NCBI RefSeq assembly: GCF_000166135.1
Contig: NC_014666.1
Coordinates: 8,508,601-8,572,600, forward strand
DNA from: Pseudofrankia inefficax
GTDB taxonomy: Bacteria; Actinomycetota; Actinomycetes; Frankiales; Frankiaceae
Direction: 5' to 3'
Length of the DNA: 64,000 nt
Part shown: positions 54,140 through 60,343 of the stretch, one piece after another
Layout: every line of letters starts with the position of its first letter
Position numbering within the stretch: the first letter of the stretch is position 1
Position numbers and translations under genes: made by a program
The notes under the pieces: generated by a model
Database searches by the model: none
Seen by the model: the letters and a program-made list of their open reading frames with translations, nothing else
What the model was told of the DNA's origin: nothing

Positions 54140-55576
54140 TCAGTGCTTGTCACCGCTCCTGGGTCCGTGGGAGCGGATGGTGACCGGCGCGCCGCACACG
54201 TCGGCGACGACGTCCGGCCAGTCCGCCGGGCCGGGCGGGCACGGGTCGAGGACGGGCCGGGCCCGCGACAGCAGCCCGGTCAGCTCCGCCGCTCGCGCCA
54301 GGTCACCGGAGGGCCCGGGCACCAGGCGGTCGACCCGCCGCGAGCCGGCCGGCTCGGCATCCGCCGGTCCGGCCGGGTCACGCACGGCGCTCGCGTCCAT
54401 GTGGTCAGCGTCGCGCGCGACCGCCGGCCCAATGTCGTCACAGTCCGGGATGCCGGAGCGGCCGGGAGTCGGCTGCACGACTGTGCCGGCCGGGCTGACC
54501 TCGTACGAACGGCAGATTCCCAGCCGTTGGCGGCTGGGCGCGTCGAGGTGGGTGAGCGCCACCGCGTCGACCCCACCGGCGACGTCGACGGCGTACCGGT
54601 GCGCGACCGCGTCGAAATGGCCGACGCGAAACGCGCCCTGCCAGCGGCCGGTGCCGTTGTGCCGGTCCGGCAGCGCGGCGGCCAGCACGGCGTCCTCGGT
54701 CACCAGCGGGCCGGCGCCATGCCGGGTGGTGTAGGTCCGCACCACCCCCAGCCGACGGGCGTCGCCGGCGGGCACGCCCGCGTCGCACAGCAGCTTCTCC
54801 GCGTTCGCGAACGTCGTCGTCGACCAGGTCGTGTACGGGTGGAAGCCGTGCCACTCGTCGAGCAGCACGCCCTGCGCCCCCTCGAAGACCACCGGTCCGA
54901 CCCGGGCCAGCTCGGTGAGGTGCCGGTCGTCGACGAGCTGGACGGCCCGCGCGAACTGCCCGAACACCTCGACGCAGGCGTCCACCGGCGGCAGCTCGCC
55001 ACCGGCCCGAGCGGGTCCCGCCAGCGGGCCGAGCTCCGCCTCCAGGCGGTCCCGCAGCTCGGTCAGCAGCCGGCGCAGCCGGGCCGGCCTGGCGCAGTCG
55101 CGGGCCCGGGGCGCGTCGTCGGGGTGGGAGAGCGCGTAGGCGGCGGTCTCACCGATGCCCATCCCGCACGAGCCGTGCCGGCCGGCGCCGCGCGCCAGCT
55201 CCCTGGTCCGGTTCGCGGCGACGTGGTACGGGGTCGTGAGCAGGGCGTCCCCGTGCACCGTCAGCCGGGCGAACGGGTCGGGCACGCCGAGAGCCGCCAG
55301 GTGCGCCGCCTCGGCAGCGAGCGCCAGCGGGTCCACGAGGACGTACCGCGACAGGTGCGTCGGCACGCCGGTGAGCGTGCCCGAGCCGAACTGGGCGAAC
55401 GTGTGGTGCCGGCCGTCGTCGGTGACGACGTTGTGCGCCGCCTGCGCGCCGCCGTTGAACCGGACCACGGCCGCCACCGGCCGCCCGTCCGCCGCCGCGA
55501 CCCGGCAGAGGTGGTCGACGACCGTTCCCTTGCCGGCGTCGCCGAACCCGAGGTCGACGACGATCGTGTGCCGCAT
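54140..55576 (-). CDS. Adenylosuccinate synthetase homologue (divergent PurA-like)
   Basis: This 478-residue protein has PurA-like motifs in order: P-loop GDAGKG with the catalytic Asp13, a His48 region (RFNGGAQAAHNV), GMGIGET, VVFEGAQGVLLDEWHGFHPY and RHGAGPLVTED. True PurA has GDEGKG, GGHNAGH and a more conserved C-terminus, so this is a distant paralogue rather than the purine enzyme. It may join an amino acid to a nucleotide other than IMP, or form another GTP-dependent bond. It is the last gene of the NrtR-J/kinase-VWA operon. AGGAGGAG precedes ATG 55576. Confidence 0.8.
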   Translation of the reverse strand: MRHTIVVDLGFGDAGKGTVVDHLCRVAAADGRPVAAVVRFNGGAQAAHNVVTDDGRHHTFAQFGSGTLTGVPTHLSRYVLVDPLALAAEAAHLAALGVPDPFARLTVHGDALLTTPYHVAANRTRELARGAGRHGSCGMGIGETAAYALSHPDDAPRARDCARPARLRRLLTELRDRLEAELGPLAGPARAGGELPPVDACVEVFGQFARAVQLVDDRHLTELARVGPVVFEGAQGVLLDEWHGFHPYTTWSTTTFANAEKLLCDAGVPAGDARRLGVVRTYTTRHGAGPLVTEDAVLAAALPDRHNGTGRWQGAFRVGHFDAVAHRYAVDVAGGVDAVALTHLDAPSRQRLGICRSYEVSPAGTVVQPTPGRSGIPDCDDIGPAVARDADHMDASAVRDPAGPADAEPAGSRRVDRLVPGPSGDLARAAELTGLLSRARPVLDPCPPGPADWPDVVADVCGAPVTIRSHGPRSGDKH

Positions 55577-55642
55577 GAGAACTCCTCCTGGTCGACTGGC
55601 GTCGGGTCCGGGGGCGGCCCCGCTGGGCCCCGGACGGATGGG

Positions 55643-56641
55643 TCAGAGCCGGGCGATGCCGGTTCCGCCGCGCTGCGCGGGCGGCTGGCCGCTCGGGCCG
55701 GGGGTGATCTCGCGGCGGTCTGGGCCGCCGGGGCGCATCCGGGCGAGCGCCTTGCCGACCGGGGCGACGGCGGCACCGGCGCCGACGTCGCGCAGGTCGT
55801 CGAGGCCCTCGTCGAGGTCGATCGAGTCCTCCAGGATGCCGATCGTCAGCGCGATCGTCTCGCAGGCGAGCCCCAGGTCGTCGAGCTCGATCACCCGCTC
55901 GCCCAGCAGCTCCCGCCAGGTCGCGAGCACCTCGTGGTCCTGCGCGTGCGCGGTCCCGGCCGGGATGATGAAGAAGACGTTGTACGTCCGCTCCAGCTCC
56001 TCGATGATCTCCCTGGTCGGGATGGCGGCCCGCAGCTGGTCGCCGAGCAGGTCACGGACCTGGCCGGCGTCCACCTTCCGGTACGGCTTCTCGTCGCCGA
56101 TGACGAACAGGTAGCCCTTCTTGCCGCGCTTCTCGACACAGTCGAGCGCGGTGTGCCGGGCCATGAAGTACATCGCCAGCTCGTAGGACTCCATGACCTG
56201 GCCGCCGCCACCACCCTCCAGGATGATGTTGCCAAGCTGCTCGTCCATCCGGTTGTCCGACTCGAACTGGCCGACCTGCAGCGGCACCCGGTCGCACGTC
56301 GCGTCCCCGATGGCGCCGAACATGATCTGCGGGTGCTCGACGTAGCCCTTGCGCAGCAGCAGCCCGAACAGCGACGGCAGCTTGGCCTGCAGTTCCTTCG
56401 GCACCGAGCCCATCGAGCCGGTGACGTCGAAGAGCACCGAGATCGCCAGCGAGGTGGGGTGCTCGGCCGAGTCACGGCTCTCCCGCTTGCCCACGCCGAA
56501 CGGGTCCAGCTCCGGGTGCGCCTTCATCGCGCGACCGGCACCGCGCATCCGGTCGCTGTAGTCGAACGCGCTCGCGCCCGTGCTCGCGCGGTAGTTCGCG
56601 GCCGCGTCATAGACGTCCGTCGACCAGGCTCCGCCACCCAT
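55643..56641 (-). CDS. VWA-domain protein
   Basis: This 332-residue protein has an intact MIDAS motif, FDVTGSMG (D72, T74, S76), in a von Willebrand A fold covering about residues 62-260, with GAIGDATCD and LFVIGDEKPYRKVD as later strands. The N-terminal 60 residues are specific to this group (FDYSDRMRGAGRAMKAHPEL). No signal peptide is present, so it acts in the cytosol, probably as an Mg2+-dependent scaffold for its operon partners. GGAGGTCATC precedes ATG 56641. There is no MoxR ATPase nearby, unlike many VWA systems. Confidence 0.85.
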   Translation of the reverse strand: MGGGAWSTDVYDAAANYRASTGASAFDYSDRMRGAGRAMKAHPELDPFGVGKRESRDSAEHPTSLAISVLFDVTGSMGSVPKELQAKLPSLFGLLLRKGYVEHPQIMFGAIGDATCDRVPLQVGQFESDNRMDEQLGNIILEGGGGGQVMESYELAMYFMARHTALDCVEKRGKKGYLFVIGDEKPYRKVDAGQVRDLLGDQLRAAIPTREIIEELERTYNVFFIIPAGTAHAQDHEVLATWRELLGERVIELDDLGLACETIALTIGILEDSIDLDEGLDDLRDVGAGAAVAPVGKALARMRPGGPDRREITPGPSGQPPAQRGGTGIARL

Positions 56642-56708
56642 GATGACCTCCAGAAAACGAGAACGAACAGCCGAAAGAGAGAAGGGACGGTGACCTGCGC
56701 CTACGGGG

Positions 56709-57962
56709 TCAGGTCACGGGTGCCGGCATGGCGAACGGGCGGAAGCGCCGCGGGCCGTAGATCCGCCCGAGCAGGTCGTCGAGCTCGCCGAGCAGCCGCC
56801 AGGCGTCGTCCGGCCGCATCGCCGGCGCCGCCGGCAGGCAGCCGGTGAGGAACCGCCGGATCGGCGCCGGTACCGCCGCCGGCAGCCGGGCCGGGTCCTC
56901 GTCGCCGAGCAGGTAGGAGACGCACCGGCTGGCGAGCGCGATGTCGGTCGCCGCGGCCGGCGGCTCGCGGCGGGCCACCTCGGCCGGGTACCAGTCGGCG
57001 TAGGCGGCGACCAGCGCCGGAATCCGCCGGCTCGGGTCGTCCGGTCCGGCGGCGGGCCGGTAGGGGCCGACGACCGCGCCGTCCGCCGGCTCGGGAATCG
57101 CGCTGTAGCACCAGTCGACGAGGACCAGGCCGTGCTGGGCCGGATGGATGAGCACGTGTGGCGGCAGCACCGCGCCGTGCGCGACACCGGCGCGGTGCGC
57201 GTACCCGATCGCGACCAGCAGCCGTCGCCACATCCAGGCCGCGTCCCGCGGGTCGAGCCCGTCCGGGTAGGCGGCTCGCACCTCGGCCAGCGTGACGAAG
57301 CCGTCGAGCCGAGCCAGCACGTTCACCCGCCGGGCCGGGGCGGGCCCGCCGTCCGCCAGCCGGGCCGTGTCGACCAGCGTGGGCACGTAGGCGGCGTGCC
57401 TGCGGTCGCCGAGCCGGGCGATCCGTCGCAGGGCCGTCGCCTCCCGGGCGACCAGGTCGTCGTCGTCGGCCGACCGGGCGATCTTGCACAGCAGGGTGTC
57501 CGGCGCGGGGCGGCCGTCCGCCGGCTCGACGCGGTCGACCCGGTACAGGACGGCCAGGTCGCCCTTGGCGTACGGGTGGCCGACCGTGTAGGCGTGCCGG
57601 GCGCGGCCGGTGACGACCGCGCCCGTCGACCCATCCGCACCCGGGCTCGTCGGCGCCTCGGCCGTGCCGCCCTGGTAGGCGAACCACAGCTCGGTGAGCC
57701 GCGCGAAGGCGGCCGCGGCATCCGCGCGCCGGCCGGCGGGGGCGACGTCCGGGTGGACCTGGCGCGCCATGGTCCGGTAGGCGCGGCGCGCCGTGCGTGA
57801 GGCCTCCCGCGCCGGGGTGCCGGCCGGGTCGAGCGGGCCGAACAGCGCCGACGCGGGCAGGCCCCGCCGCAGCACCTGGTCCACGATCTCGTCGAACGTG
57901 TGCGGCGGTGGTGCCGTCGAGCCGGTCCCGGCGGCGCCGGGCGAGACGGCCTCTGTGATCAT
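56709..57962 (-). CDS. J-domain protein fused to a protein-kinase-like (pseudokinase) domain
   Basis: In this 417-residue protein, residues 25-98 form a J-domain with the HPD motif at 70-72 (ARQVHPDVAP). From about residue 120 a kinase-like domain follows: Lys160 in LLCKIA and Glu174 in AREATALRRI are retained. The catalytic loop, however, reads AHGAVLPPHVLI (HGA in place of HRD) and the metal motif is LVDWC in place of DFG. It therefore probably binds but does not phosphorylate. It overlaps the NUDIX regulator gene (ATGA) and has AGGAGG before ATG 57962. The J-domain implies DnaK recruitment. Confidence 0.82.
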   Translation of the reverse strand: MITEAVSPGAAGTGSTAPPPHTFDEIVDQVLRRGLPASALFGPLDPAGTPAREASRTARRAYRTMARQVHPDVAPAGRRADAAAAFARLTELWFAYQGGTAEAPTSPGADGSTGAVVTGRARHAYTVGHPYAKGDLAVLYRVDRVEPADGRPAPDTLLCKIARSADDDDLVAREATALRRIARLGDRRHAAYVPTLVDTARLADGGPAPARRVNVLARLDGFVTLAEVRAAYPDGLDPRDAAWMWRRLLVAIGYAHRAGVAHGAVLPPHVLIHPAQHGLVLVDWCYSAIPEPADGAVVGPYRPAAGPDDPSRRIPALVAAYADWYPAEVARREPPAAATDIALASRCVSYLLGDEDPARLPAAVPAPIRRFLTGCLPAAPAMRPDDAWRLLGELDDLLGRIYGPRRFRPFAMPAPVT

Positions 57963-58819
57963 CGGGGGTCCTCCTTTCCGGGACGCAGCAGTGCGGGGTG
58001 CAGCAGCCGAGCGGGACCGGCCCGGTAGAGCCGGGCCCGGCGGCCGCCCCGGGCGCCGCCGCTGGCGGTGGTGGCGCCGGTGTCCTCGACGAACCCCGGC
58101 GCGGAGAGCACCTTGCGGTGGAAGTTGGGCGCGTGCAGCGGCTGGCCCCAGACCGTCTCGTAGACGGCCCGCAGCTCGGTGACGGTGAACTCGGCGGCCA
58201 CGAACGCGGTGGCCAGCGGCGTGTACTCGAGCTTGGAGCTGGCTCGTTCCAGGCCGTCCGCCAGGATTCGCGCGTGGTCGAACGCCATCCCGTCCCGGTC
58301 GACCGACGTGACCGGAAGCCAGGCGGCCGAGGCCGCGTCGCCACCAGCGGTGGGATCAGGCAGGTCAGGCGCGAAGGCGAGGTAGGCGACCGAGATGACC
58401 CGCATTCTCGGGTCGCGCCCCGGAGTGCCGTAGGTCCCGAGCTGCTCCAGGTGGATCCGGTCGAGCCGGCGGTCGGCCGCTCGCCGGTCCGGTGACGCGG
58501 CCAGCCCGGTCTCCTCCGCGAGCTCCCGGACGGCGGCCGCGCCGAGGTCCTCCTCGACGCGCGCGCCGTCGGGCCCGACCGTCGTCCGGATGAAGCCCCC
58601 CGGCAGGGCCCACCGGCCCGCGAAGGGCGCCTGCCCGCGCCGCACCAGCAGCACGTGCAGGGTGGGCACGGCCTCCCCCGCCGGGTTCTCCACCAGCCGG
58701 ATGGTGAGCGCGACGACGTCGACGGTGACCGCGACCGGTTCGTAGTCGCGCGGGTCGTAGGACGCGAGGAACGCGGCCTCCTCCGCCGCGCCGCCACCGG
58801 CCTGGGTCCCGTCCGCCAT
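57959..58819 (-). CDS. NrtR-like NUDIX transcriptional regulator
   Basis: In this 286-residue protein, residues 25-165 form a NUDIX domain (HVLLVRRGQAPFAGRWALPG, then AAVRELAEETGL) with an insert in the Nudix box as in NrtR. A winged-helix part follows (FTVTELRAVYETVWGQPLHA, NFHRKVLSAPGFVED). NrtR proteins sense ADP-ribose or related nucleotides and repress NAD-linked genes. The REL-x-EE residues are intact, so catalysis is possible. ATG 58819 with GGAGAG upstream is preferred; starting at ATG 58876 would put the operator palindromes inside the gene. It heads the four-gene operon. Confidence 0.85.
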   Translation of the reverse strand: MADGTQAGGGAAEEAAFLASYDPRDYEPVAVTVDVVALTIRLVENPAGEAVPTLHVLLVRRGQAPFAGRWALPGGFIRTTVGPDGARVEEDLGAAAVRELAEETGLAASPDRRAADRRLDRIHLEQLGTYGTPGRDPRMRVISVAYLAFAPDLPDPTAGGDAASAAWLPVTSVDRDGMAFDHARILADGLERASSKLEYTPLATAFVAAEFTVTELRAVYETVWGQPLHAPNFHRKVLSAPGFVEDTGATTASGGARGGRRARLYRAGPARLLHPALLRPGKEDPR

Positions 58820-58866: not shown

Positions 58867-58897
58867 TTCTCGACATGAGAAATTCTTAGATTGAGAA
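58867..58897. promoter_or_regulatory. Paired palindromic operators upstream of the NrtR-like gene
   Basis: TTCTC-GACAT-GAGAA (58867-58881) and TTCTT-AGATT-GAGAA (58883-58897) are two 15-base palindromes with the same arms, 16 bases apart. They lie about 50-80 bases before ATG 58819 and are the natural binding sites for the NUDIX regulator. Confidence 0.65.
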
Positions 58898-59093: not shown

Positions 59094-59939
59094 TCAGGCG
59101 TCCGACCCTCGGCGGGACCGCAGCCGCAGCCACAGGGCCCCGACTGCCGCGGCGAACGCCGCGCCAGCACCTCCGGCGACGGCGGGGTGCCGCCGGACCT
59201 CCTGGCCGAGCTCGCGCGCGGTCTTCCCGCTGGACGCGACCGCCGCGGCACGTTCCGCCGCCGTGGCCACCCACGGGTGTTCGCCCGCCTGGGAGCGGAC
59301 CTTGCCGGCCGCGGTCTTCGTGCGCTCCGTCGCGGCGGCCACCTGCGGCGTCACCTTCTCGCGCGCGCTGGCGACGGCGGGGCCGACCTTGTCCTTCGCC
59401 GTGGAGACGGCTGGAGCGACCTTGTCCTTCGCCGTCGAGACCGCCGGGGCGACCAGGTCCTTCGCCGTCGAGACGGCCGGGCCGATCCTGGAGACGGCGG
59501 GCGCGACCTTCTCGCGGGCGGTCGCGACGGTGGGGCCGACCTTCGCGACCGCGGGACCGACCTTGTCCCGCACGGTGGCCACCGCCGGGCCGACCCGCTG
59601 GCGCGCGCCCGCGATCACCCCGGGACCGGCCTCGTCGTCGGCCGGCTCCACCGGCGCGTCCTCGCCCAGCTGTCCGGCCGACACCGGCTGTCCGGCCGCT
59701 GCCGGCTCTCCGGCCGGCACCGATTCGGCCGCCGGCTCGGCGCCGTCCACCGGGTGGTGCCCGTTCAGGCCGGACGCGCCGTTCAGGCCGGCGGTCAGGC
59801 TGCCGGGCGGCTCCTGGCTGGGGGTGGGGTAGTCGTTGACAGGTGCGATATCGGACAACGCGGAGTAGGGGGCCGGGGGCTCGGTGGCGCCCTCCGGCGC
59901 GGTCCCGGCGGACTCCGACGAGTTGTCTGGCTCGGTCAC
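59094..59939 (-). CDS. LEA-like repeat protein with C-terminal membrane segment
   Basis: In this 281-residue protein a disordered, acidic Pro/Ala/Glu-rich N-terminal half is followed (about 140-235) by eight or so 11-residue repeats of the type V-G/A-P-A-V-S-T-A-K-D-K. These form amphipathic helices as in LEA group 3 and apolipoprotein-like proteins. A hydrophobic segment (AGGAGAAFAAAVGALWLRL) near the end could anchor it. Such proteins protect membranes or proteins under drying or stress. GTG 59939 has AAGGGA upstream; the repeats are also visible as 33-base DNA repeats. Confidence 0.75.
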   Translation of the reverse strand: MTEPDNSSESAGTAPEGATEPPAPYSALSDIAPVNDYPTPSQEPPGSLTAGLNGASGLNGHHPVDGAEPAAESVPAGEPAAAGQPVSAGQLGEDAPVEPADDEAGPGVIAGARQRVGPAVATVRDKVGPAVAKVGPTVATAREKVAPAVSRIGPAVSTAKDLVAPAVSTAKDKVAPAVSTAKDKVGPAVASAREKVTPQVAAATERTKTAAGKVRSQAGEHPWVATAAERAAAVASSGKTARELGQEVRRHPAVAGGAGAAFAAAVGALWLRLRSRRGSDA

Positions 59940-60343
59940 CTCGATCCCTTCTTGGTGCTCCGGTCGGTGATGAATGATCGCCAGCGGGTGCGGGCCTGCC
60001 GCGGAGTGCTGCCGCGAACGACCGCCCCACATCTCCGGCCACACCCCGCAAGACGAGCCATGGTCGGCAAAATGCGCATTACTTGAGCTACCCGTGATGC
60101 TAAGGAGATAGTCCGTCGTTCTTCACCGCAAGGACACCCCAACAGGGGCGGCGTGACCGAAAGACCGCGCGGACCACGGCGAGGCATCCCACCCGCCCCA
60201 GCCCGACGTGGCCCGGCCGCCGGACCCCGAGCCGGCCGCCGCGCGGTGGAATCCGGCTGACCAGCGGGTTTCGGGCGAAGGGAGGGGCCGGGCGGCCCCC
60301 GTCGGCTACGGTTTTCCTGGGCAGCGGACTCGGGGAGGTCGGG
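59940..60343. other. Divergent intergenic region, 404 bases
   Basis: It separates the LEA-like gene from the amidase gene. TAAGGAG occurs near 60100 but does not precede a plausible gene. No RNA, operator or promoter was recognised. Confidence 0.35.

What the first reader, a model, noticed from the sequence alone, without database searches (positions are those of the whole stretch)
54140..58819. Four-gene operon: NrtR-like regulator, J-domain/pseudokinase, VWA protein, divergent adenylosuccinate synthetase
The genes run in one direction with strong ribosome sites and a 4-base overlap. A nucleotide-sensing regulator, a chaperone-recruiting pseudokinase, a metal-dependent scaffold and a PurA paralogue do not form any pathway I know. 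Together they suggest a nucleotide-modifying or stress/defence module in which VWA and J/pseudokinase proteins organise a ligase. This is the best candidate in the window for an undescribed system. Motifs are seen directly; the joint role is inference.
Basis: partly seen in the sequence, partly recalled or inferred. Interest (0 to 1): 0.82.

Follow-up and report, generated by a model that had tools for sequence, protein, structure and literature searches.

The report
Phage-derived purine-ligase module, NrtR-controlled
Four neighbouring bacterial genes (a metabolite-sensing switch, a chaperone-recruiting dead kinase, a metal-binding adaptor and an altered purine-making enzyme) form a conserved unit whose relatives are mostly in large phages; I found no published description of it, and it probably modifies a purine nucleotide or a protein in the contest over NAD and purines.

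Summary
The genes are where stated (4-bp overlap, Shine-Dalgarno-like sites). Of 80 bacterial loci found with the VWA protein as bait, 69 hold all four genes in the same order. In 58 related genomes the VWA, the AdSS paralogue and the J-pseudokinase occur in exactly the same 14. All 80 kept viral contigs with the VWA carry the AdSS paralogue. The AdSS tree puts bacterial copies in at least two places within phage diversity.
The AdSS paralogue keeps PurA's catalytic residues (Asp13, Lys16, His41, Gln224: 241 of 241) but has a shorter, remade aspartate loop without Arg303. The VWA protein has a near-invariant start, M-G-x-[GS]-x-aromatic (Gly2 in 214 of 216). The Nudix protein is NrtR-type; its probable operator, a palindrome, occurs at one place in the 8.8-Mb genome. 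Some phages interleave the module with NAD-salvage genes.
Most likely: a VWA-AdSS complex doing AdSS-type chemistry with a non-aspartate amine. Substrate, complex and role are inferred.

The parts
57959..58819 (-). Nudix + winged-helix regulator (NrtR type), probable dedicated autoregulator of the operon
   Evidence: PF00293 58.1 bits, PF21906 NrtR_WHD 48.2 bits; NCBIfam NF050029 110.7 bits, far below its 400-bit cut-off; Nudix box REUXEE intact in 68 of 74 actinobacterial homologues, lost in 6 of 6 alphaproteobacterial/Rhodococcus/Tsukamurella ones. Start taken as ATG 58819; one search lists a longer ORF from 58876 whose start would lie inside the palindrome.
58867..58881 (.). 15-bp palindrome TTCTC-N5-GAGAA upstream of the Nudix gene, putative operator
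   Evidence: At most 1 mismatch in 64 of 75 actinobacterial upstream regions (14 exact, 50 with one; 11 with two), spacer 5 in 62 of those 64; exact pattern at one place in the 8.8-Mb genome, reversed control 0. Binding not tested.
56709..57962 (-). J-domain (HPD) fused to a protein-kinase fold that has lost the catalytic Asp: J-domain pseudokinase
   Evidence: Complete HPD in 156 of 173; HRD Asp present in only 3 of 173, DFG Asp in 114, VAIK Lys in 130. AlphaFold pLDDT 87.1; Foldseek best VRK1 and PknB; phrog_3043 'kinase' 3e-46.
55643..56641 (-). VWA-fold protein with MIDAS (DVTGSMG) and near-invariant N-terminal M-G
   Evidence: No Pfam match, phrog_2971 5e-80; AlphaFold pLDDT 90.5; VIA-align best 9e8c_B integrin Z 16.7, rmsd 2.9, 192 aligned; Gly2 in 214 of 216, aromatic residue 6 in 213 of 216.
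54140..55576 (-). Adenylosuccinate-synthetase paralogue with a remade amine-binding loop
   Evidence: PF00709 191.8 bits; phrog_1211 2.3e-72; catalytic residues kept and aspartate loop changed in a 241-sequence family; separate clade from canonical purA, support 100.

Best explanation
The locus is a compact module that bacteria took over from large phages (inferred from the AdSS tree). Its core is the AdSS paralogue plus the VWA protein, most likely one complex (inferred from near-inseparable linkage). The enzyme phosphorylates the C6 oxygen of a 6-oxopurine with GTP, as PurA does (inferred from kept residues), and an amine other than free L-aspartate then displaces the phosphate (inferred from the remade loop). 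The purine substrate may also differ from IMP; an NAD- or ADP-ribose-related dinucleotide is one candidate (inferred, weak). The J-domain pseudokinase is a nucleotide-binding or chaperone-recruiting accessory, missing from some modules. In bacteria the operon is held off by its own NrtR-type repressor at TTCTC-N5-GAGAA and released by an NAD-derived ligand, probably ADP-ribose (inferred from characterised NrtR proteins). The likely role is in the contest over NAD and purine nucleotides during phage infection.
For: Linkage. Enzyme: D13, K16, H41, Q224 in 241 of 241, GTP-contact D333 in 239; V273 to His in 241; N38 to Gln in 239; T129 to Cys/Val in 230; R303 replaced (Gly in 227) and T301 aromatic in 221 in the MAFFT alignment. 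Regulation: palindrome; divergent Nudix gene in Acetobacter, Rhodovulum, Agrobacterium and Rhizobium. NAD link: NrtR-type Nudix, NAMPT, VWA, AdSS and J-kinase genes side by side in phage loci L119, L135 and L138; NAMPT within 5 kb in 6 of 10 records that have it (uniform placement P=0.00005), NADAR within 3 kb in 5 of 21 (P=0.002). M. smegmatis NrtR is an auto-repressor released from its palindrome by ADP-ribose (PMC6800001, passages). Phage origin.
Against: No activity, complex or ligand has been shown. The aspartate loop is one residue shorter and its register differs between alignments: T301 aligns with Gln and G302 is kept, G302 aligns with Gln; Arg317, conserved in 239 of 241, could stand in for R305. 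Arg143 is Arg in only 7 of 241 at the aligned column, but the stretch is gappy and 134 of 241 have some Arg in it, so its loss is not certain. NAMPT (10 of 50) and NADAR (21 of 50) are not more frequent in module-bearing phage records than printed rates for larger phages (NadV 22-33%, NADAR over 48%; PMC9503650); only position is unusual, NADAR within 1 kb is not significant (2 of 21, P=0.12), and NAD genes may cluster for other reasons. Only 3 of 80 viral loci have the Nudix regulator. Some NrtR relatives regulate arabinose genes (AraR_C also hits; PMC4666351, start of abstract). The ADP-ribose used on MsNrtR is printed as 50 mM. Inter-protein coupling gave no interpretable signal.
Confidence: 0.42

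Rival explanations
1. Protein conjugation: the N-terminal Gly2 amine of the VWA protein (exposed after Met removal) replaces aspartate as nucleophile, so the AdSS paralogue attaches a purine nucleotide to the VWA N-terminus or tethers the VWA to a purine.
For: Gly2 in 214 of 216 and aromatic residue 6 in 213 of 216 at the translation start, kept when the start codon is GTG or TTG; remade amine loop in the enzyme; VWA and AdSS paralogue together in 80 of 80 viral contigs; an R2K ATP-grasp gene, a predicted peptide-ligase family, just downstream in 19 of 82 loci (PMC4431377 passages).
Against: An invariant N-terminus can be purely structural; no precedent known to me; two loci lack the Gly2 start as called (L106, L142) and L157 has ATA there; a conserved Arg317 might still bind a carboxylate; coupling analysis uninformative.
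Confidence: 0.13
2. A spare PurA or a PurZ-like enzyme: ordinary adenylosuccinate or succino-2-aminodeoxyadenylate synthesis for phage DNA, with VWA and kinase as unrelated neighbours.
For: Clear PF00709 homology; phage records name it PurA-like or '2-aminooxy adenylosuccinate synthetase'; catalytic residues kept; Arg317 conserved and loop register uncertain.
Against: R303 and both loop threonines replaced, V273 to His in 241 of 241; canonical purA also present in the bacterium; PurZ model 41.1 bits against a 300-bit cut-off; strict linkage to the VWA argues against unrelated neighbours.
Confidence: 0.13
3. A bacterial anti-phage defence system sensing NAD breakdown, with the AdSS paralogue making a toxic or signalling nucleotide.
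For: NrtR-type control; patchy distribution (14 of 58 relatives; 2 of 296 genomes across the phylum); VWA in 21 plasmid records.
Against: The AdSS branch is most diverse in phages and bacterial copies lie inside it; PADLOC matches only the kinase-fold protein, best 27.5 bits; no defence gene recurs beside it in 25 actinobacterial loci.
Confidence: 0.15
4. RNA or DNA end repair/modification: the module works with ligases, polynucleotide kinase and HAD phosphatases on nucleic-acid ends or bases.
For: Clusters within 8 kb in 82 loci: HAD_SAK_2 (14 loci), ATP-dependent DNA ligases (13 loci, whose representative is below the Pfam cut-off, and 9 loci), RNA ligase (7 loci); a PNKP-type HAD gene near it in phage LRRHood; a TROVE gene about 2.3 kb downstream of AdSS in Vibrio phage phiKT1024.
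Against: These neighbours belong to part of the phages, and such genes are common in large phages; none recurs in the 25 bacterial loci examined.
Confidence: 0.15

Closest known systems
PurA adenylosuccinate synthetase (PF00709)
   Same: Family, P-loop GD[AE]GKG, Asp13, Lys16, His41, Gln224, GTP-contact Asp333
   Different: Aspartate loop TTGRxRR one residue shorter and replaced by an aromatic-Gln-Gly-x-hydrophobic-Arg pattern without R303; V273 to His in all 241; N38 to Gln in 239; separate clade, support 100
PurZ of 2-aminoadenine phages
   Same: Phage AdSS homologue
   Different: PurZ model 41.1 bits against a 300-bit cut-off; the solved chain named PurZ (7odx) matches the family profile only weakly (35.2 bits)
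NrtR regulators of NAD metabolism
   Same: Nudix + NrtR winged helix; palindromic site in front of its own gene
   Different: Half-site differs from M. smegmatis GTTTTCGA-N7-TCGAAAAC; heads this module, not nad genes; Nudix box intact in 68 of 74 actinobacterial members
ARG-centred NrtR/vWA systems (PMC9503650, passages read)
   Same: Nudix-type transcription factor and a vWA predicted peptide-binding chaperone in one operon
   Different: No ADP-ribosylglycohydrolase or phosphatase among the four genes; AdSS paralogue and J-pseudokinase instead
Phage NAD salvage (NadV/NAMPT + NadM; NARP)
   Same: Interleaved with the module in a few phages
   Different: Separate enzymes; no NAMPT found in 40 of 50 module-bearing phage records, some of which may be fragments

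Membership tests
PurA (ordinary adenylosuccinate synthetase) | Catalytic Asp13/Lys16/His41 and base-binding Gln224 | tested here: met
   241 of 241 for each
PurA (ordinary adenylosuccinate synthetase) | L-aspartate loop TTGRxR with Arg303 (role recalled, not from a call) | tested here: not met
   R303 is Gly in 227 of 241 and Arg in 3; also replaced in the profile alignment. Loop register uncertain; Arg317 (239 of 241) might replace R305
PurA (ordinary adenylosuccinate synthetase) | 5'-phosphate Arg143 of the partner subunit (role recalled) | tested here: inconclusive
   Arg in 7 of 241 at the aligned column, but a gappy stretch; 134 of 241 have some Arg in it
PurA (ordinary adenylosuccinate synthetase) | Makes adenylosuccinate / complements purA | not testable with these tools
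   needs assay
PurZ | NCBIfam NF038379 over its cut-off | tested here: not met
   41.1 bits against 300
NrtR family | Nudix domain fused to NrtR winged helix | tested here: met
   PF00293 and PF21906 over cut-off
NrtR family | Palindromic operator in front of the regulated genes | tested here: met
   Sequence only: 64 of 75 regions at no more than 1 mismatch; one place in the genome. Binding not tested
NrtR family | ADP-ribose releases it from DNA | not testable with these tools
   needs gel shift
VWA domain | VWA fold with MIDAS DxTxS | tested here: met
   Z 16.7 to an integrin chain; all three MIDAS positions kept (Ser/Thr allowed) in 214 of 215
VWA domain | Pfam VWA model over cut-off | tested here: not met
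   no Pfam match at E up to 1; the fold stands on the model instead
J-domain protein | HPD motif between two helices | tested here: met
   HPD complete in 156 of 173; helices 51-68 and 76-98 flank it in the model; PF00226 itself below cut-off
Active protein kinase | HRD catalytic Asp | tested here: not met
   Asp in 3 of 173
Known anti-phage defence system | PADLOC models for the components of one system | tested here: not met
   hits only for the kinase-fold protein (best MkoA 27.5 bits, E 2.2e-07); none for the other three
ARG-centred NrtR/vWA system | ADP-ribosylglycohydrolase in the operon | tested here: not met
   none among the four genes; no widely shared further gene in 25 flanks

The most novel reading that the evidence does not exclude
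The AdSS paralogue no longer uses free aspartate but the N-terminal glycine amine of the VWA protein, joining a protein N-terminus to C6 of a purine nucleotide (perhaps NAD-derived): a new kind of protein-nucleotide conjugation, invented in phages and taken over at least twice by bacteria under NrtR control.
Probability: 0.13. Interest if true: 0.95.

Novelty: categorically new. Interest (0 to 1): 0.8.

Why it matters
It would be a widespread, compact phage and bacterial system in which a well-understood purine enzyme has been turned to a new amine and perhaps a new purine substrate, locked to a metal-site adaptor and a J-domain pseudokinase. The residues that changed, the invariant VWA N-terminus and a probable dedicated operator make the substrate, the conjugation idea and the inducer directly testable. 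C1 mycobacteriophages, grown on M. smegmatis, carry it naturally.

Tried and rejected
Ordinary PurA duplicate: held unlikely on the remade aspartate loop and strict VWA linkage, not excluded. PurZ: rejected on score. Chance neighbourhood: rejected. My first reading that catalytic His41 was lost was wrong (note, corrected): His41 is the second His of GGHNAGHT and is invariant. Gene fusions among the four families: none found in 819 matching ORFs. Sequence coupling between VWA and AdSS (mean-field DCA, 237 pairs, effective number 106 for 651 columns): dominated by a few columns, not interpretable. Extra conserved genes in actinobacterial flanks: 25 loci, largest cluster in 4. Kuttervirus adenylosuccinate synthase and VWA genes (PMC10892097, two passages of its gene table): ten rows apart, and no Salmonella- or Escherichia-named phage is among the VWA hits. 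The AdSS paralogue was not modelled by AlphaFold (both jobs went to VWA and J-kinase). Sigma-70/terminator scan: nothing found; tRNA scan of the window: none.

Literature: searches aimed at the combination or its enzyme; at Ter, NAD and NrtR background (open-licence PMC papers only). None listed a paper that by its title or abstract start describes the module. Of the listed papers I looked only at passages of PMC7824862, PMC4431377, PMC9503650, PMC6800001 and PMC10892097 (and one short section of PMC9503650); the passages found in the first three do not mention an AdSS-VWA-kinase module. The rest I saw as listings. Papers in subscription journals could exist.


Full report
WHAT IS THERE. The window lies at 8,508,601-8,572,600 of an 8,815,781-bp one-contig genome; from its size and its Frankia/Pseudofrankia relatives I take it to be Pseudofrankia inefficax EuI1c, which is recall, not a tool result. 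Pfam supports NUDIX + NrtR winged helix and adenylosuccinate synthetase; the J-domain is below the Pfam cut-off and the VWA protein matches no Pfam model. PHROGs matches all four to phage families: Nudix hydrolase, kinase, unknown, and '2-aminooxy adenylosuccinate synthetase'. The ordinary purA is elsewhere in the genome.

THE FOUR FAMILIES TRAVEL TOGETHER. With the VWA protein as bait, 80 loci from named genomes were kept of 139 confirmed. 69 of 80 hold Nudix, J-kinase, VWA and AdSS in that order; in five more the missing gene lies at a contig end (L019, L021, L059, L060, L062); four Catenulispora-type loci hold only VWA + AdSS, and two Hamadaea loci lack a detectable J-kinase. In 58 relatives the VWA occurs in 14, the AdSS paralogue (465 bits or more; next best 228) in the same 14, and the J-kinase (111 bits or more; next 59) in the same 14; in G023 VWA and AdSS lie on different contigs, and in G001 the VWA and J-kinase matches are partial. 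Across 296 phylum genomes the VWA is in 2 and the paralogue (over 500 bits; others at most 245) in the same 2. The module is also on Rhodococcus and Tsukamurella plasmids with the Nudix gene downstream, and in Acetobacter, Agrobacterium and Rhizobium with a divergent Nudix gene. Variovorax has J-kinase-VWA-AdSS without a detected Nudix gene; Rhodovulum has Nudix, J-kinase and VWA but no AdSS found; in Methylorubrum a shortened VWA and the AdSS were found.

IT IS CHIEFLY A PHAGE MODULE. In 50,697 phage records, 208 have the VWA: 189 Mycobacterium, 10 Rhizobium, 6 Vibrio, 3 others. The C1-type phage LRRHood has kinase-VWA-gp255-AdSS in order; a Vibrio and a Rhizobium phage were read. In IMG/VR, 261 contigs encode VWA relatives; of the 80 kept, 80 also have the AdSS paralogue, 66 the J-kinase and 3 a Nudix regulator (its tally also includes ten other loci, L098-L107, which I subtracted). 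VWA precedes AdSS on the same strand in 155 of 157 phage pairs, 116 of them within 300 bp (related contigs not removed). A tree of 73 module AdSS proteins and 9 canonical PurA separates the two (support 100); bacterial modules need at least two separate places inside phage diversity (quick method, 37 of 79 inner branches under 80% support).

THE ENZYME. Against canonical PurA (E. coli numbering transferred through; residue roles recalled), 241 family members keep D13, K16, H41 and Q224 without exception and the guanine contact D333 in 239. V273 is His in all 241, N38 is Gln in 239, T129 is Cys or Val in 230. The aspartate loop TTGRxRR is one residue shorter. In the MAFFT alignment T301 is W/F/Y in 221, G302 Gln in 230, R303 Gly in 227 and R305 hydrophobic; the profile alignment shifts the first part by one (T301 to Gln, G302 kept). 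In both, R303 and the loop threonines are replaced, but Arg317, present in 239 of 241, could stand in for R305. Arg143 is Arg in 7 of 241 at the aligned column, but the stretch is gappy and 134 of 241 have an Arg in it, so its loss is uncertain. This predicts kept GTP-dependent activation of a 6-oxopurine and a different amine; a different 5' environment is possible. No activity was tested.

THE VWA PROTEIN. The AlphaFold model (50 sequences, pLDDT 90.5) has the VWA fold (integrin beta chain, Z 16.7, rmsd 2.9, 192 aligned; Foldseek). MIDAS residues are kept in 214 of 215, and D113, E127, E151, D183 in 215 of 215. Unusually, the start itself is conserved: residue 2 is Gly in 214 of 216, residue 4 Gly/Ser in 202, residue 6 aromatic in 213; the start codon is ATG in 211. 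The seven loci with another start codon or residue 2 were inspected; two lack the Gly2 start as called (L106, L142), and L157 has ATA at the start. My start choice leaned towards the profile start, but the coding sequence carries the motif at that point, and five of these seven have an in-frame stop within 60 bases upstream. In two C1 phages an intein-like insert of about 250 residues sits before the invariant IGDE motif.

THE J-PSEUDOKINASE. The model (pLDDT 87.1) has J-type helices around HPD and a kinase fold (VRK1, PknB; the J part was not searched alone). HPD is complete in 156 of 173; the catalytic Asp of HRD is kept in 3, the VAIK Lys in 130, the DFG Asp in 114. So probably no phosphotransfer, possibly nucleotide binding in part of the family.

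CONTROL. Upstream of the Nudix gene, 64 of 75 actinobacterial regions hold TTCTC-N5-GAGAA with at most one mismatch, and the spacer is 5 in 62 of those although 3-8 was allowed. TTCTCA/TGAGAA occurs 11.8 times per kb there against 0.18 in whole loci; 34 of 75 regions have two or more, against 63 of 20,000 random stretches. The exact palindrome occurs at one place in the genome, window 58867-58881. I saw no such site in the six alphaproteobacterial/Rhodococcus/Tsukamurella upstream regions printed; their operator, if any, differs. M. smegmatis NrtR is an auto-repressor that ADP-ribose releases from GTTTTCGA-N7-TCGAAAAC (PMC6800001, passages). Ligand and binding are untested here.

NAD CONNECTION. 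In phage locus L119 the order is NrtR-type Nudix, VWA, a second Nudix protein that I read as NadM-like (Pfam gives NUDIX only), NAMPT, AdSS, J-kinase; in L135 and L138 it is NrtR-type Nudix, NAMPT, VWA, AdSS, J-kinase, then a nucleotidyltransferase-like protein (below the Pfam cut-off in L138). Among 50 viral records, NAMPT is in 10 and within 5 kb of the module in 6 (0.57 expected under uniform placement, P=0.00005); NADAR is in 21 and within 3 kb in 5 (1.02 expected, P=0.002), though within 1 kb only in 2 (P=0.12); five distance cuts were tried for each. Neither is more frequent than printed rates for larger phages. I chose the 50 by hand from 91 non-redundant loci, favouring long contigs. 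Other recurrent neighbours (R2K ATP-grasp, HAD_SAK_2, ligases) belong to part of the phages.

CONCLUSION. A real conserved module, best read as a phage-born AdSS-type ligase complex with a new amine, put under an NAD-metabolite switch in bacteria. The linkage, residue changes, folds and palindrome are shown; substrate, complex, ligand and biological role are inferred.

Noticed in passing
L280:2501-4282 and L281:2501-4285 (C1 mycobacteriophages Yassified and Fludd): The VWA gene carries an in-frame intein-like insert of about 250 residues before the invariant IGDE motif; one record therefore names the whole gene 'HNH endonuclease'.
   Followed up: partly
L104:9001-10026 (Rhodovulum sp. MB263 plasmid): The module looks decayed: the VWA gene is annotated as a TonB-dependent receptor with an unlike C-terminus, and no AdSS paralogue was detected in the locus.
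   Followed up: no
L142:7980-8912 and L106:8950-9651: The only two VWA loci of the 216 distinct ones without a Gly2 start as called; L106 looks truncated at its N-terminus.
   Followed up: partly
viral loci such as L139, L141, L144, L146, L151, L165, L177: Part of the phages add an R2K ATP-grasp gene directly after AdSS (19 of 82 loci) and a HAD_SAK_2 gene just before the J-kinase (14 of 82).
   Followed up: partly
window 59094-60044, minus strand: ORF with repeated VAPAVSTAKDK-like units beside the module; not studied.
   Followed up: no
L135:7699-7941: A short 81-aa ORF begins MGGGFWTDDFY, like a copy of the VWA N-terminus, directly before the full VWA gene.
   Followed up: no
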